A stretch of 33,071 nt of DNA, taken from the IMG/VR virus record IMGVR_UViG_3300039159_000237, positions 1 through 33,071 of that record. One strand, written 5' to 3'. A model generated the notes under the pieces. The model was not told the origin of the DNA, ran no database searches, and worked only from the letters and a program-made list of their open reading frames with translations. Position numbers and translations under genes: made by a program. This document shows positions 7,943 through 20,493 of the stretch, one piece after another (within the stretch, counting starts at the first letter, position 1; every line of letters starts with the position of its first letter). The DNA comes from a virus.

Positions 7943-8992
7943 ATGAATGTATTAACAAGGTATGGTGGAGTAACCTTATCTAGTCTAAGTGTGGGTAGTA
8001 GAGTAATAGCTGGAGATGATGTTAGACAACCTAATCTTAGTGGTGATGAGGCTCTTATTACTTCTATAGAAATAGGGGAAAAGGATCTATATAAAATTAC
8101 ACTTACTGATGGCACAGAACTCGAAAGGGGTTTAGATTCCTTATGGCAGGTTAAAGAAGAGAGCGCTTCTATCTGGTCTATAGTAGTTCTAGATGAGCTT
8201 CTAACCTGGTTTCCTAATAAGATAGATCCCTATTATTGTGCTTGTAGTTCTAATCCTTATATAAAAGCTAGGTATGAAATAAGACAGGTTCAATACTATA
8301 TACCTTTCTCTAACATACTTCTTGATTCTATTCCACCATATTGGATAGGTGTCTTTGCTACTAAGGGATGTTTGGAAGGGCCAGAGCCTTTCCTTTACTT
8401 AGATAGAGAAGAGGCCTCTAGGATAAGAGATCAAGGTTCATGGGACTTCATTCTTATGGAGCCTTATACAACTACTCCTGATAAATACTTCTTTAGAAGT
8501 TATACCTATATCAATGAAAGGAGTAAGTTATCTATTGAATTAGAAAACTTGGGCCTTCTCTTTAAGAGTAAGGAAGAAAGACTAATTCATAACTCTTACA
8601 TCTATAGTGATTTTAGAGATAGGGTTAATCTCATACAAGGGATTATGGATAGTGTAGGTTATATAGACCCTATTACTGGGATAAGTATTGCTCTCTTATC
8701 TAATCAAGGTATAGCTAAACAATTAGAGTTCATAGTTAGAACCTTAGGTGGCACTACTACGACTTATTATGATAGTAAGGTAAGAGAGTATTTAGTCAGT
8801 GTATATCTACCTAGGACTGAAACCCCTTTCTCTAGACCTAGCTTAGTTAATAGGTACACATACTTTGAACCTAAGTTAACCCCTATATATATTGAGAGTA
8901 TAGAAAGGCTGGATGAAAGGGGTCTTGTTACTAGTATTAATCTAGAGAATAATCAACCTTATATTACAGATGAATTCTTAGTTATTTATTAA
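7943..8992 (+). CDS. Free-standing, splicing-defective intein-like protein (Hint + LAGLIDADG)
   Basis: This 349-residue protein looks like a whole intein without exteins. Residues 1-70 resemble the Hint N-terminal half of phage inteins: VLTRYGGVTLSSLSVGSRVI, ALITSIEIGEKDLYKITLTD, then GLDSLWQV. It begins directly after where the catalytic Cys and the G-D/E-T segment should be, and the block B His (usually DHLW) is replaced by Ser. Residues 122-132 (PYWIGVFATKG) and 220-231 (LIQGIMDSVGYI) match the two LAGLIDADG helices. The first lacks its acidic residue; the second keeps Asp. The end, NNQPYITDEFLVIY, corresponds to the usual HLYLTDDFIVTHN, but the terminal His-Asn is gone. It has its own RBS (AAGGAG) and a stop just upstream in frame. 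It is predicted to be unable to splice; DNA cleavage is possible but uncertain. It sits next to phoH, which is uninterrupted. Confidence 0.75.
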   Translation: MNVLTRYGGVTLSSLSVGSRVIAGDDVRQPNLSGDEALITSIEIGEKDLYKITLTDGTELERGLDSLWQVKEESASIWSIVVLDELLTWFPNKIDPYYCACSSNPYIKARYEIRQVQYYIPFSNILLDSIPPYWIGVFATKGCLEGPEPFLYLDREEASRIRDQGSWDFILMEPYTTTPDKYFFRSYTYINERSKLSIELENLGLLFKSKEERLIHNSYIYSDFRDRVNLIQGIMDSVGYIDPITGISIALLSNQGIAKQLEFIVRTLGGTTTTYYDSKVREYLVSVYLPRTETPFSRPSLVNRYTYFEPKLTPIYIESIERLDERGLVTSINLENNQPYITDEFLVIY

Positions 8993-14072: not shown

Positions 14073-14678
14073 ATGCATAATGATGGAGAAGATGAAGATG
14101 GAGATGGAGAAGAACCTAAATTTAATGCTATGGAGGATGAAGAGATACTCATTTGTCCTAGCCCTTATGATACTAATTGTAGATGGCTGGATATTAAGTG
14201 TTCTTCCTGTAAGGTAATCAATAGGTCTAGCAAGGCATTACATTATAGTCCTCTTAGTAGGTTATTACCTAAACATCCTTTATTAATGGCAGAGGAGAAG
14301 GATAAGAAGGAAGCTAGGAAGTTATTAGCTAAGGAGAAGAAGAGTAGCTCTGCTTCTATTAAAGGAAGAACTAATAATAGACTGGGTAAGAAAGCTGAAA
14401 GAGTTGCTATGAAAGATATAGGTGCTAAGGCTACTATAGCTTCTGGCTCTGTATGTGGGGATGGTGATGCATATATAAGTGCTGGCGATCTTAAGTTACA
14501 GATAGAACATAAGCTTAGAATATCTAGTAAGGGTAGACTCGGCATTACTAAAGAGGAATGGGATAAAGGTAAAAGACAGGGTATAGACCTATTTGTTATA
14601 TCCTCTGAGGATCAAAGAATAGTAATAATGAGTGATGAATTATTTAAGACTTTAATGGAGATTATTAATAATGGCTAA
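14073..14678 (+). CDS. PD-(D/E)XK nuclease, Hjc-like, with N-terminal Cys4 motif
   Basis: This is a 201-residue protein when started at ATG 14073, which has TAAGGA six bases upstream; a GTG at 14049 would add eight residues. After an acidic N-terminus come four Cys (C-x7-C-x6-C-x2-C, residues 28-46), a possible zinc site. A Lys-rich linker follows. The nuclease core is NRLGKKAERVAMKDIGAKAT with Glu about 109, ASGS, then GDLKLQIEHK holding Asp 139, Glu 145 and Lys 147. This order (E, S, D, ExK) is that of archaeal Hjc-type Holliday junction resolvases and related phage nucleases. The last part (GIDLFVISSEDQRIVIMSDE) fits the closing strands. It overlaps recA by eight bases, so it probably acts in recombination. 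Junction specificity is inferred, not shown. Confidence 0.7.
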   Translation: MHNDGEDEDGDGEEPKFNAMEDEEILICPSPYDTNCRWLDIKCSSCKVINRSSKALHYSPLSRLLPKHPLLMAEEKDKKEARKLLAKEKKSSSASIKGRTNNRLGKKAERVAMKDIGAKATIASGSVCGDGDAYISAGDLKLQIEHKLRISSKGRLGITKEEWDKGKRQGIDLFVISSEDQRIVIMSDELFKTLMEIINNG

Positions 14679-16932
14679 GGCAACAACTAAGGAATCAACT
14701 AAGGCAACACCTAAGGAATCACCTATTGAGGATTTAGATAGTAAGCTAAAGGAATATGAGGCCTTAGATAAACAACTGGCAGCTATTGGGGGTTCTTATA
14801 AAGGGCTTACTGGTAAGAATAAGAAGATGACTAATACTCTTACCTTCATTTCTACTGGTTGTATCTCTATAGATAGGGCTATAAAAGGTTTAGTACCTGG
14901 TAGGATCTATGAGATATTTGGTAAGACTGGAGTATGTAAATCATCTGTTACTCTAGCTATGATGGCAGCTATGCAAAGGGCGGGCCATGTTTGTATGTGG
15001 ATAGATGTGGAGGCTTGCTTCACTGAAGAGTATGCCAGTATGTGTGGTGTAGATGTTGAGAAGCTTATCCTTATACGTCCTGATAATATGAATGAGGCAT
15101 TAGAGGCAATAAGGGTAGCCTCATCCTCTGGCTTAGTTAAGTTTATTGGATTAGACAGCGTAGCTGCAATGGTGCCTAAGGATGAGTTTGATAAGGATGT
15201 AGGTGGTGGAATGCTAGGCACTAGAGCTAGGTTACTATCAAGTGCCTTACCTCAAATAGTTAAACACTGCGGAGATACTGGTTGTATCCTTATGTGTATC
15301 AATCAAGTACGTGCTGCAAACCTTATGGGATATGGATGCTTCCATGAGGATACCTTAGTAACCTTTAGTGATGGTTCTTTAGTACCTATTAAGAAGGTAG
15401 TAGAAGATAAAATGGTAGGCCCAGTACTTAGCTATGATGATACCTCTGGTCAATTCATATCTAAGAAGATAACTAATTGGTTTAATAACGGTAAGTTAGA
15501 TTTATCTAATGAGACTTGGCATAACTTTATAACCTCCTCTGCTGGAGGTCGAGGTGGGCGTATGGGTTTCTCTTGTACTCCTAATCATGAAGTACTAACT
15601 TCTGAGGGCTATAAGAAAGCTCAAGAGTTAACAGTAGGTACCAAGCTTATTTCTTACTATGAGAGTAAGTGGTTAAATAACCCTGTTATTAGTGATATTA
15701 TTTATGGCTCATTATTGGGAGATGGAGGTTTAATACGTAGAGATACTTCTACAGCTGCCTTGGGGTTACAGAACAATAAACAGAAGGAATACTTAGATTG
15801 GAAGATGAATATCCTTTCTGGTTTAGATTGGAAACCTCGGGGTATTAGTTTTAATAGCTCTTTTTCTACTGAGTTATCTTTACTAAAAGATAAGTTCTAT
15901 AGGTGGCATGGAAAGAGAGAAAGAAGGATGATCCCAGATGATCTAATTCTTACTCCTTTAATGGCTGCTGTGTGGTATATGGATGATGGTTCTATCGACC
16001 TTAAGGATTATCATAAAAGGGGTAAAGTCTCTGCTTATAGATTAACTACTATTTATGATGAACAGTTAAGAGAAGCGCAGCTAAATAAGTATAAAGAGGT
16101 CTGGTCTTCTTTCTTAGGTGTAGCAGTAGATAAAGTAGATTCTAGAGGTAGTATTTACTTTGATACTCAAGCCTTTTCTATCTTATGTGAGAAGATACAT
16201 AAGTATGTTCCACCTTCTATGCAATATAAACTACTAGAGGAGTATAGAGGTAAGTATAAAGAAGTTGAGGTAGGTAATGTTAATTCTACAACTCATCCAT
16301 ATGAAGTAGAAATCTTATCAATAGATGTCTTATCTCCTAGGAAACTTAGGGTTAAGACTAAATATGATATAGAGGTAGAAGGAACTCATAACTATCTAGT
16401 GGGCGGAGGTAATAGAGGTGTAGTTGTACATAACTCTAAGTCAACCACAACAGGGGGTGCAGCACTTCCTTATTACTCTTCAGTTAGAATGGAGATGAAT
16501 AGAAGTGGCTATATTGAGGGTAAGGGTGATGAGAAAATAGGTATGGAAATTAAACTCCAAACTATTAAGAATAAGACCTATACTCCTTTTAAGACAGCTA
16601 CCCTTACTTTCATCTATCCTACTGAGGATGGTAAAGGAGGCTTAGACCTAATAGCAGATGTAGTAACTAATGCTGTTGAGTTAGGTGTTATTGTTAAGGC
16701 AGGTTCTTGGATGAGATATGGTGAGAGTATATCTATTCAGGGTGAACCTAAGTTTAAGACTCTATTAGAAAGTGATCCAGTATTACTATCTGAGATTAGA
16801 GAGAAGACAATGGAACTTATTAATAATAGTAATAATAATAGTAATAATAATAATAATAGTGAGAGTGATATAGATGATGGAACAGGAAGTGAAGACTCCT
16901 CAAGTGAAAAAGAGGGCCAGGAAGAGCCCTAA
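14671..16932 (+). CDS. recA: RecA-family recombinase precursor containing an intein
   Basis: This 753-residue precursor would give a 387-residue RecA after loss of the 366-residue intein. RecA pairs homologous DNA strands using ATP. The N-extein shows STGCISIDRAIKGLVPGRIY, the P-loop GKTGVCKS (84-91), IDVEACF, the Walker B-like FIGLDSVAAMVP (159-168), GTRARLLSSALPQI and CINQVRAANLMGYG, which leads into loop L2. After the intein, STTTGGAALPYYSSVRMEM completes L2, followed by the closing RecA core. The second Gly of the usual GxxxxGK is Cys here (C89). T4 UvsX also departs from Gly at this place, so activity is not excluded. The N-terminus (1-45) is Lys/Glu-rich. The C-terminus is a poly-Asn tract followed by an acidic tail, as RecA often has. 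The end overlaps the next gene by 59 bases. Confidence 0.92.
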   Translation: MAKATTKESTKATPKESPIEDLDSKLKEYEALDKQLAAIGGSYKGLTGKNKKMTNTLTFISTGCISIDRAIKGLVPGRIYEIFGKTGVCKSSVTLAMMAAMQRAGHVCMWIDVEACFTEEYASMCGVDVEKLILIRPDNMNEALEAIRVASSSGLVKFIGLDSVAAMVPKDEFDKDVGGGMLGTRARLLSSALPQIVKHCGDTGCILMCINQVRAANLMGYGCFHEDTLVTFSDGSLVPIKKVVEDKMVGPVLSYDDTSGQFISKKITNWFNNGKLDLSNETWHNFITSSAGGRGGRMGFSCTPNHEVLTSEGYKKAQELTVGTKLISYYESKWLNNPVISDIIYGSLLGDGGLIRRDTSTAALGLQNNKQKEYLDWKMNILSGLDWKPRGISFNSSFSTELSLLKDKFYRWHGKRERRMIPDDLILTPLMAAVWYMDDGSIDLKDYHKRGKVSAYRLTTIYDEQLREAQLNKYKEVWSSFLGVAVDKVDSRGSIYFDTQAFSILCEKIHKYVPPSMQYKLLEEYRGKYKEVEVGNVNSTTHPYEVEILSIDVLSPRKLRVKTKYDIEVEGTHNYLVGGGNRGVVVHNSKSTTTGGAALPYYSSVRMEMNRSGYIEGKGDEKIGMEIKLQTIKNKTYTPFKTATLTFIYPTEDGKGGLDLIADVVTNAVELGVIVKAGSWMRYGESISIQGEPKFKTLLESDPVLLSEIREKTMELINNSNNNSNNNNNSESDIDDGTGSEDSSSEKEGQEEP
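15337..16434 (+). other. Intein in RecA with LAGLIDADG homing endonuclease
   Basis: This encodes residues 223-588 of the precursor. It begins at Cys (CFHEDTLVTFSDGSLVPIKK, block A) after ...ANLMGYG. Block B is seen as FSCTPNHEVLTSEGYKKAQ, with the TPNH signature. The endonuclease helices are DIIYGSLLGDGGL (about residue 345) and PLMAAVWYMDDGSID (about 428), both with the acidic residue kept. The end is GTHNYLVGGGNRGVVVHN followed by Ser as the +1 residue. All splicing residues are present (Cys1, TxxH, C-terminal His-Asn, +1 Ser), so it should be splicing-competent, and the endonuclease also looks intact. It sits in the DNA-binding L2 loop, a classic conserved site for inteins. Confidence 0.93.
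16820..16860 (+). repeat. AAT/AGT trinucleotide repeat encoding poly-Asn
   Basis: An in-frame run of AAT with interspersed AGT codons encodes an Asn/Ser tract near the RecA C-terminus, between the folded core and the acidic tail. It is prone to slippage in whole codons, so linker length may vary between relatives. Confidence 0.85.
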
Positions 16933-17317: not shown

Positions 17318-17341
17318 AATTAAAAGGTTCATATAAATACT

Positions 17342-17565
17342 ATCCCTCGTCACTAACTCCGGGCTGAAGCCACGGAGCTTGTCTGAACCAATTCAGACAA
17401 CTTAAGTAGCGACTAGCCCATTGAGTCACCAGATGTTACAGATTTCCGAATACTTCTCTAGTTCGGATTGACTCTAAGCCTGATTGGTTCGGGCGTTGCA
17501 TTATGGCAAGACATATTTCTGGTGATGGGCGAAGAGACTTAAACAAGTAATTGGGTTATACCAAA
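17342..17565 (+). ncRNA. Candidate omega-RNA (HEARO-like) guiding IsrB
   Basis: This 224-base non-coding stretch directly before isrB has a strong nested fold. CTCCG/CGGAG (17357-17361/17373-17377) encloses GGC-TGAA-GCC. TTGTCTGAA pairs with TTCAGACAA (17379-17387/17392-17400) around CCAA. TCCGAA pairs with TTCGGA (17445-17450/17462-17467). The long-range helix TCACCAGA/TCTGGTGA (17426-17433/17518-17525) is continued by GCCCA/TGGGC (17416-17420/17526-17530). A multi-helix RNA with a long-range closing stem just upstream of the ORF is the known architecture of omega-RNAs of IscB/IsrB. The guide would be the bases just 5' of the scaffold, that is, flanking phage DNA. The exact ends are uncertain. 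Confidence 0.75.
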
Positions 17566-18660
17566 ATGCGAATTCCAGTTGTCGATCAAGGTCATGAGCC
17601 ACTCATGCCTACCACCCCTGCACGAGCGAGGAAATGGCTTGCCTCTGGTAAAGCCATCAAGCGCTGGTCTGATTGTGGTCAGTTCTATGTGCAACTCACC
17701 GTAGAACCATCCGGCTATGCCACCCAATCTATTGTTGTCGGGATTGACCCCGGCAAGAAGTATTCAGGGATTGGCGTTCAATCAACGCGCTTCACGCTGT
17801 ACACCGCTCATCTAATTCTGCCGTTCCAAACGGTTAGAGACAGGATGGACTCACGCCGCTTGATGCGACGGGCACGTAGAGGGCGCAGAATCAACCGTAA
17901 GGTGAAGTTCAATCAACGCGCCCATCGTCAGAAACGATTCTCGAATCGACGGCAAAGTAAGCTTGCTCCTTCAATTAGAGCTAATCGTCAGCTTGAACTC
18001 AGAATTGTGTCTGAACTCTGTCAGATTTACCCAGTCAAAGCTATTCGATATGAATATGTTCGAGCTGATGTAGATCTCACCAGTGGGCGTAAGAAGGCTC
18101 GTTCAGGTAAAGGGTTTAGTGCTGTGATGGTGGGTCAGAAATGGATGCTGGAGCAGTTGAAACAATTTGCTCCTGTCAGCACTATTGAGGGCTATCAAAC
18201 TGCCTCAACTCGCAAGTATCTAGGGCTGAGCAAGGACAAAGTAAATAAGTCGAAGGCTGAGTTCAACACTCATGCTGTCGATGGAGTGGCAATAGCTGCT
18301 TCCTACTTTGTTAGATATCAACAGTATCACAGGGTTGGTGAAGATGGTGGTGATTGGGTAGGTAATGTTTTCATCACGCCTGCACCATTCCTTGTCATTT
18401 GTCGTCCACCTTACAGTCGTCGCCAGCTTCACTTAATGGTTCCTGCCATTGGTGGAGTAAGGCGTAAATATGGTGGGTCTACGACTCGCCACGGGGTTCG
18501 TAAGGGTGACTTAGTTAATTCCCCCAAAGGGATTGGCTATGTTTCTGGCGACACCAAAACACAGATATCTGTTAGCAATGCCAACTGGAAACGGTTGGGG
18601 CGGATATCGGCTAAAAAGGTGCAATTAATCCGTAGGTCAAACGGCTTGATTGTAGCTTGA
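17566..18660 (+). CDS. isrB: IsrB: RNA-guided RuvC nickase (IscB relative without HNH)
   Basis: This is a 364-residue protein. The ATG at 17566 is preferred over TTG 17551, because IscB/IsrB proteins begin a few residues before the PLMP motif. The PLMP domain is VVDQGHEPLMPTTPARARKW. RuvC-I is VVGIDPGKKYSG (Asp 61). An Arg-rich bridge helix follows (RRLMRRARRGRRINRK). RuvC-II is IRYEYV (Glu 163). RuvC-III is NTHAVDGVAIAA (His 236, Asp 239). Only about 70 residues separate RuvC-II and -III, containing VGQKWMLEQL, with no HNH motif; this and the length identify IsrB rather than IscB. The C-terminus (KYGGSTTRHGVRKGDLV, GRISAKKVQLIRRSNGL) matches the target-adjacent-motif interaction region. IsrB proteins nick DNA guided by omega-RNA. 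All RuvC residues are kept, so it is probably active. Confidence 0.9.
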   Translation: MRIPVVDQGHEPLMPTTPARARKWLASGKAIKRWSDCGQFYVQLTVEPSGYATQSIVVGIDPGKKYSGIGVQSTRFTLYTAHLILPFQTVRDRMDSRRLMRRARRGRRINRKVKFNQRAHRQKRFSNRRQSKLAPSIRANRQLELRIVSELCQIYPVKAIRYEYVRADVDLTSGRKKARSGKGFSAVMVGQKWMLEQLKQFAPVSTIEGYQTASTRKYLGLSKDKVNKSKAEFNTHAVDGVAIAASYFVRYQQYHRVGEDGGDWVGNVFITPAPFLVICRPPYSRRQLHLMVPAIGGVRRKYGGSTTRHGVRKGDLVNSPKGIGYVSGDTKTQISVSNANWKRLGRISAKKVQLIRRSNGLIVA

Positions 18661-18675
18661 TAGCTTGAAGTAAAG

Positions 18676-18701
18676 CCGTCCTCCGCTTTGCTAAAAGACG
18701 G
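18676..18701 (+). other. Right-end hairpin of the IsrB element
   Basis: CCGTC (18676-18680) pairs with GACGG (18697-18701) around CTCCGCTTTGCTAAAA, followed by GGGTTTCCACC. Subterminal hairpins of this type mark the right end of IS200/IS605-family elements, where they are recognised by TnpA. It lies 16 bases after the isrB stop. Confidence 0.65.
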
Positions 18702-18735
18702 GGTTTCCACCTACATTTTTGATGAGGGTTTAATT

Positions 18736-20470: not shown

Positions 20471-20493
20471 ATAGAAATTACATATAAATAATG

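What the first reader, a model, noticed from the sequence alone, without database searches (positions are those of the whole stretch)
17342..17565. Structured omega-RNA candidate with a long-range pseudo-continuous helix
Five helices are exact by eye, including TCACCAGA/TCTGGTGA 84 bases apart, continued by GCCCA/TGGGC. There is no ORF here, and the RNA runs up to the isrB start.
Basis: seen in the sequence. Interest (0 to 1): 0.7.

Follow-up and report, generated by a model that had tools for sequence, protein, structure and literature searches.

The report
Cyanophage IsrB element's guide-RNA scaffold
The stretch encodes the guide-RNA scaffold of an IsrB "OMEGA" nickase, a small RNA-guided relative of Cas9, inside a mobile element that a cyanobacterial virus has picked up; the RNA is real and strongly supported, but it is a new copy of a known kind of system.

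Summary
All named helices are present, TCACCAGA/TCTGGTGA lie exactly 84 bases apart, no plausible gene covers the stretch, and the RNA folds 4.4 sd better than shuffles. Rfam HEARO (RF02033) aligns end to end at 17349-17544, but at 37.4 bits, well under its cut-off of 83. A covariance model built from 25 relatives without the window scores it 211 bits. Of 52 window-derived pairs, 41 show compensatory changes. The two long-range helices stay paired in 94-98% of cells, and two pseudoknots matching those described for DtIsrB omegaRNA covary as well. The scaffold starts at 17349, not 17342; the predicted guide is the 20 bases before it, and the last hairpin abuts the isrB start (17566). The whole unit is a 1373-bp element, 17349-18721, inserted directly before ATGA. 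IsrB is intact and about 80% identical to cyanobacterial copies. Relatives show exact empty sites, left-flank|ATGA, and ATGA is usually a gene's start codon. Likeliest mechanism: an RNA-guided homing/retention nickase moved by a transposase acting in trans. A published laboratory case reports an IsrB element jumping from Microcystis into a phage at ATGA. Verdict: real, new member of a known kind. Transcription and nicking remain untested.

The parts
17349..18721 (+). Whole IsrB mobile element (1373 bp): left end GTCACTAAC..., omegaRNA scaffold, isrB, right end ...CATTTTTG
   Evidence: Boundaries by analogy with exact empty sites of relatives, the same ends in 37 elements tabulated, and GC 47.8% against 37.5% for the rest of the window
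17329..17348 (+). Predicted 20-nt guide (TCATATAAATACTATCCCTC): phage DNA flanking the left end
   Evidence: Position by analogy with DtIsrB omegaRNA (20-nt guide 5' of scaffold, PMC9581776); guide length not tested here
17349..17565 (+). omegaRNA (HEARO) scaffold up to the isrB start codon
   Evidence: Rfam RF02033 17349-17544, 37.4 bits, full length; leave-window-out covariance model 211.4 bits, E 4.6e-48
17349..17413 (+). Closing stem 17349-17355/17407-17413, enclosing two hairpins 17357-17377 and 17379-17400 (guide-adaptor region)
   Evidence: Covariation: 4 of 6, 7 of 8 and 6 of 9 pairs with double changes
17416..17530 (+).
   Evidence: 93.5% and 97.6% of cells paired; 3 of 5 and 7 of 8 pairs with compensatory changes
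17387..17488 (+). Adaptor-type pseudoknot: hairpin loop 17387-17392 (ACCAAT) with hairpin loop 17483-17488 (ATTGGT)
   Evidence: 95.2% of cells paired, compensatory changes in 3 of 6 pairs; divergent relatives swap both loops together
17445..17467 (+). Hairpin TCCGAA/TTCGGA
   Evidence: 99.5% of cells paired, double changes in 6 of 6 pairs
17455..17537 (+). Nexus-type pseudoknot: loop 17455-17459 (TCTCT) with 17533-17537 (AGAGA)
   Evidence: 100% of cells paired; middle pair C-G 19, U-A 10, G-C 2
17478..17509 (+). Hairpins 17478-17494 and 17496-17509
   Evidence: Covariation in 5 of 6 and 3 of 4 pairs
17551..17564 (+). Terminal hairpin TTGG-GTTATA-CCAA directly before the isrB ATG
   Evidence: Kept in relatives as TTGG/CCAA, GGA/TCC, GGT/ACC, TGGA/TCCA
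17566..18660 (+). isrB, 364 aa: RRXRR/PLMP domain, RuvC acidic residues D61, E163, D239 present; no HNH
   Evidence: Pfam PF14239 166 bits; phmmer E 9e-44 to DtIsrB 8dmb; invariant D61/E163/D239
18661..18721 (+). Right end with hairpin CCGTC/GACGG (18676-18680/18697-18701) and terminal ...CATTTTTG
   Evidence: Same form in most of the close relatives listed
18722..18725 (+). ATGA: target-adjacent motif at the right junction
   Evidence: ATGA at the right junction of all elements tabulated; NTGA TAM known for DtIsrB

Best explanation
17349-17565 is the scaffold of the omegaRNA of an intact IsrB element carried by an LMM01-like cyanophage. The phage DNA just left of the element (about 17329-17348) is transcribed as the guide. 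IsrB binds the RNA, finds the same sequence followed by ATGA, and nicks the non-target strand. Because guide plus TAM equal the element-free version of the very site where the element sits, the complex would attack element-free copies of that locus (sister genomes after excision, or related phages in the same cell). Repair from the filled copy would then spread or retain the element. Movement to new sites would need an HUH transposase (TnpA) supplied in trans. Shown: RNA structure and covariation, intact IsrB, element ends, exact empty sites in relatives, ATGA at the junction. Inferred: transcription, guide length, nicking, homing.
For: Full-length RF02033 match; leave-window-out model 211 bits; 41 of 52 pairs covary; two pseudoknots corresponding to those described for DtIsrB omegaRNA covary (description in PMC9581776); terminal hairpin reaches the start codon, as DtIsrB SL7 does. 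IsrB 79-83% identical to many cyanobacterial IsrBs, with RuvC residues and PLMP motif. Uninterrupted empty sites left|ATGA at three cyanobacterial insertion loci with the adjacent 20 nt intact or nearly so. Published: an IsrB gene with 207 bp upstream and 59 bp downstream moved from Microcystis into phage Mic1 at ATGA in the laboratory (PMC11237433).
Against: No transcript data. No TnpA in the 33-kb fragment, so mobility is inferred. No element-free relative of this phage locus was found, so the empty site of this insertion is itself predicted. A nickase is a weaker homing agent than a double-strand cutter. A TATAAATA box (17332-17339) lies inside the predicted guide; if transcription starts from it, the guide would be too short.
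Confidence: 0.85

Rival explanations
1. The RNA is only the transposon left end plus a translational leader of isrB; the structure is conserved for transposition and isrB autoregulation, and no guide RNA acts in the phage.
For: The first hairpins coincide with the element's left end; the terminal hairpin abuts the start codon. In DtIsrB, SL1 is dispensable for nicking and the terminal hairpin contains the Shine-Dalgarno sequence. No TnpA and no transcript evidence here.
Against: Both pseudoknots needed for DtIsrB nicking are conserved with compensatory changes (requirement reported in PMC9581776), which a simple leader or end would not need, and IsrB keeps its RuvC residues.
Confidence: 0.05
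2. A silent passenger: a recent transfer from a cyanobacterial host that has no activity in the phage.
For: GC 47.8% against 37.5%, about 80% identity to host copies, only one phage with this insertion found. A sister phage carries an IsrB relic replaced by an HNH gene.
Against: ORF and RNA are both undamaged: a 211-bit model match with no non-standard pair marked.
Confidence: 0.1
3. Chance secondary structure in non-coding DNA.
For: Rfam score is below the curated threshold and a default scan returns nothing.
Against: Fold z -4.4; covariation far beyond shuffles and slid controls; leave-window-out model E 4.6e-48.
Confidence: 0.001

Closest known systems
HEARO RNA (Rfam RF02033)
   Same: Full-length alignment in model order, same consensus helices, followed by an RRXRR-type ORF
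   Different: 37.4 bits, below the gathering score of 83; it belongs to a cyanobacterial/cyanophage subgroup that the Rfam model scores poorly in this case
DtIsrB omegaRNA-nickase (Desulfovirgula thermocuniculi; PDB 8DMB, PMC9581776)
   Same: Protein homologous over its length (E 9e-44), PLMP domain, RuvC, no HNH; two pseudoknots and a terminal hairpin at the start codon in corresponding places; ATGA fits the NTGA TAM
   Different: Shorter scaffold (217 against 262 nt). The TAM-reading Gln326 is Arg346 here, a change that lets DtIsrB accept NTGG as well as NTGA
IsrB element that jumped into Microcystis phage Mic1 (PMC11237433)
   Same: Phage-borne, IsrB with about 0.2 kb upstream and about 60 bp downstream, inserted at ATGA
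   Different: There it disrupted a tnpB-like gene and lowered infectivity; here it sits between genes. That paper does not describe the upstream 207 bp as an omegaRNA in the passages read
IsrB of Microcystis phages LMM01, MaMV-DC, CH01, CH02
   Same: 65-66% identical IsrB, same RNA fold, same ends
   Different: Different locus in the phage genome; those carry a repeated left end that the window element lacks

Membership tests
HEARO / omegaRNA | Covariance-model match over the full consensus | tested here: met
   1-211 of 211 aligned, E 1.2e-5 in a 2-kb search, but 37.4 bits against gathering 83; leave-window-out subgroup model 211 bits
HEARO / omegaRNA | Conserved secondary structure with compensatory changes | tested here: met
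   41 of 52 pairs; RNAalifold 40 of 49
HEARO / omegaRNA | Adaptor and nexus pseudoknots as described for DtIsrB omegaRNA | tested here: met
   95% and 100% of cells paired, with compensatory changes
HEARO / omegaRNA | Lies directly upstream of an iscB/isrB gene on the same strand | tested here: met
   isrB starts at 17566
HEARO / omegaRNA | Transcribed, with a 5' guide taken from flanking DNA | not testable with these tools
   No RNA data; the guide is predicted from position only
IsrB (OMEGA nickase) | PLMP and split RuvC with acidic residues, no HNH, about 350 aa | tested here: met
   364 aa; PF14239; D61, E163, D239; homologous to 8dmb over 2-361
IsrB (OMEGA nickase) | RNA-guided non-target-strand nicking with NTGA TAM | not testable with these tools
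   Only the genomic junction ATGA is seen
IS200/IS605-type element | Precise insertion without target duplication, fixed ends, specific target motif | tested here: met
   Exact empty sites at three loci of relatives; ATGA at all tabulated junctions
IS200/IS605-type element | TnpA (Y1 transposase) in cis | tested here: not met
   No PF01797 match in the 33-kb record, so it is filed as a non-autonomous IsrB element rather than a complete IS

The most novel reading that the evidence does not exclude
The phage IsrB is an RNA-guided homing nickase for translation-start regions: its guide copies the stretch just before a gene and its TAM is often the start codon plus A, so it spreads between phages and hosts without breaking coding sequences. 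In this copy, Arg in place of Gln at the TAM-reading position would also admit NTGG sites.
Probability: 0.25. Interest if true: 0.6.

Novelty: new member of a known kind. Interest (0 to 1): 0.35.

Why it matters
The case shows a complete, apparently intact OMEGA nickase system in a cyanophage that default Rfam annotation misses. Exact ends and empty sites make the homing idea directly testable. The strong association of these insertions with gene start codons (25 of 36 against 18% of background ATGA sites) suggests how such an element stays tolerable to phages and hosts.

Tried and rejected
Default Rfam scan: no hit, which alone would have wrongly suggested no HEARO. Searches for element-free relatives of this phage locus with three flanking proteins found none. 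The predicted empty junction TACTATCCCTCATGA hit 17 viral contigs, but flanks agree at no more than 31 of 55 bases, so these are chance or unrelated. MaMV-DL01 looked like an empty site of the LMM01 insertion but is a relic with an HNH gene in place of most of IsrB. TATAAATA as a phage late promoter: only 3 copies in the window against 8 expected by chance, so no support by count. No second target of the guide in the window with up to 3 mismatches. No TnpA. Structure prediction was not run because homology to a solved IsrB was already clear.

Full report
What was claimed.

The observation. All of this is in the sequence. The octamers lie at 17426-17433 and 17518-17525 with 84 bases between them; GCCCA/TGGGC are at 17416-17420 and 17526-17530. 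The stretch folds at -71.9 kcal/mol, 4.4 standard deviations below dinucleotide shuffles. Other frames there are 20-62 aa and mostly on the other strand. The scaffold really starts at 17349.

Is it an omegaRNA? A default Rfam scan finds nothing. With a permissive threshold, HEARO RF02033 aligns over its full length at 17349-17544, 37.4 bits, E 1.2e-5, but below the curated 83 bits. Close IsrB relatives were then gathered from cyanobacterial genomes and viral contigs. In a 31-sequence alignment, 41 of 52 window-derived pairs show compensatory changes and 92% of cells pair; no shuffle matches this, and sliding the partners by one base halves it. RNAalifold on its own finds 40 of 49 pairs compensated. 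A covariance model built without the window finds it at 211 bits, E 4.6e-48, as the only hit in 33 kb, and also finds the RNA in more distant IsrB loci.

Pseudoknots. PMC9581776 describes an adaptor pseudoknot between two hairpin loops and a nexus pseudoknot in the DtIsrB omegaRNA, both needed for nicking. The window has loop ACCAAT (17387-17392) against loop ATTGGT (17483-17488), and loop TCTCT (17455-17459) against AGAGA (17533-17537). Across relatives they pair in 95% and 100% of cells with compensatory changes. A terminal hairpin TTGG-GTTATA-CCAA directly before the ATG is kept by double changes (GGA/TCC, GGT/ACC), so the RNA does run to the isrB start. Equating these with the named DtIsrB pseudoknots is my inference from position.

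The protein. isrB (17566-18660, 364 aa) matches RRXRR and DtIsrB over its length, is 79-83% identical to many cyanobacterial IsrBs, and keeps D61, E163 and D239. Where DtIsrB has Gln326, which reads the fourth TAM base, this protein has Arg346; 64 loci in the scan have Gln, and among true relatives only L045 also has Arg. In DtIsrB the Q326R mutant also accepts NTGG. A wider TAM here is therefore a prediction, not a result.

The element. Right ends of the tabulated relatives all abut ATGA. For three Planktothrix-type insertions, relatives hold uninterrupted sites in which the left flank runs straight into ATGA, with no duplication or loss. By the same rule the window element is 17349-18721 (1373 bp, GC 47.8% against 37.5% elsewhere), and the predicted empty site is TACTATCCCTC|ATGAGGG. 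ATGA opens a frame of at least 60 codons in 25 of 36 relatives against 18% of background ATGA sites; no resample of 20,000 reached 25. So these elements mostly sit exactly at gene starts. That may reflect survival of harmless insertions as much as preference, and some of the 36 loci are closely related. In the window itself ATGA is not the start codon of the next gene, which begins 14 bases further on.

The host. Neighbouring genes (PD-(D/E)XK nuclease, Holliday junction resolvase) match Microcystis phage LMM01 relatives and a Microcoleus phage at about 30-42% identity; LMM01 has the two in the same order but without IsrB at that place. LMM01 has its own IsrB elsewhere.

Mechanism. The best reading is an RNA-guided nickase aimed at the element-free form of its own insertion site, promoting retention or homing, with movement to new sites needing TnpA in trans (none found in cis). 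Direct precedent: an IsrB gene with 207 bp upstream and 59 bp downstream moved from Microcystis into phage Mic1 at ATGA in the laboratory (PMC11237433). HEARO systems on viral fragments are also known (over 16%, PMC9755519). From memory, not checked here, the original HEARO description already noted integration before ATGA/GTGA.

Limits. There is no expression or activity evidence. The guide length is assumed. A TATAAATA box inside the predicted guide could shorten it if it is a promoter. The window is a fragment with no close relative available.

Verdict. Observation and interpretation both stand; new member of a known kind, of moderate interest.

Noticed in passing
L006 2675-2790; also L011, L012, L013, L098, L104, L106, L144 just upstream of the omegaRNA: Microcystis phages carry a variable tandem series (up to about 7 units, roughly 19-55 nt or longer) of the omegaRNA 5' end (GTCACTAACCCC...) with differing sequence between, before the one complete scaffold. 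It looks like a CRISPR-like or repeated left-end array; origin and function unknown.
   Followed up: partly
L010 1541-2440 (MaMV-DL01): Most of the IsrB gene and scaffold is replaced by an HNH-type (homing endonuclease-like, by eye) gene, leaving relics of both ends: one selfish element inside another.
   Followed up: partly
window 14671-16932: The UvsX/RecA gene holds an intein with a LAGLIDADG endonuclease, so two homing-type elements lie within about 1 kb of each other.
   Followed up: no
window 18601-18603 (codon for Arg346 of IsrB): Arg at the TAM-reading position where nearly all relatives have Gln; the same change widens the TAM of DtIsrB.
   Followed up: partly
window 17344-17348 joined to 18722-18728: The predicted empty site is a perfect 12-base palindrome, CCCTC|ATGAGGG, split by the element.
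   Followed up: no
window 17332-17339 and 20483-20490: TATAAATA, resembling a T4-type late promoter box, in two intergenic regions on the + strand; one lies inside the predicted guide.
   Followed up: no
window 7943-8992: 349-aa ORF with a weak match to a terminase family in its middle and an N-terminus that looks Hint/intein-like by eye; possibly an intein-related remnant.
   Followed up: no
L106 2441-2546: A second, partial omegaRNA relic about 230 bases upstream of the complete one.
   Followed up: no
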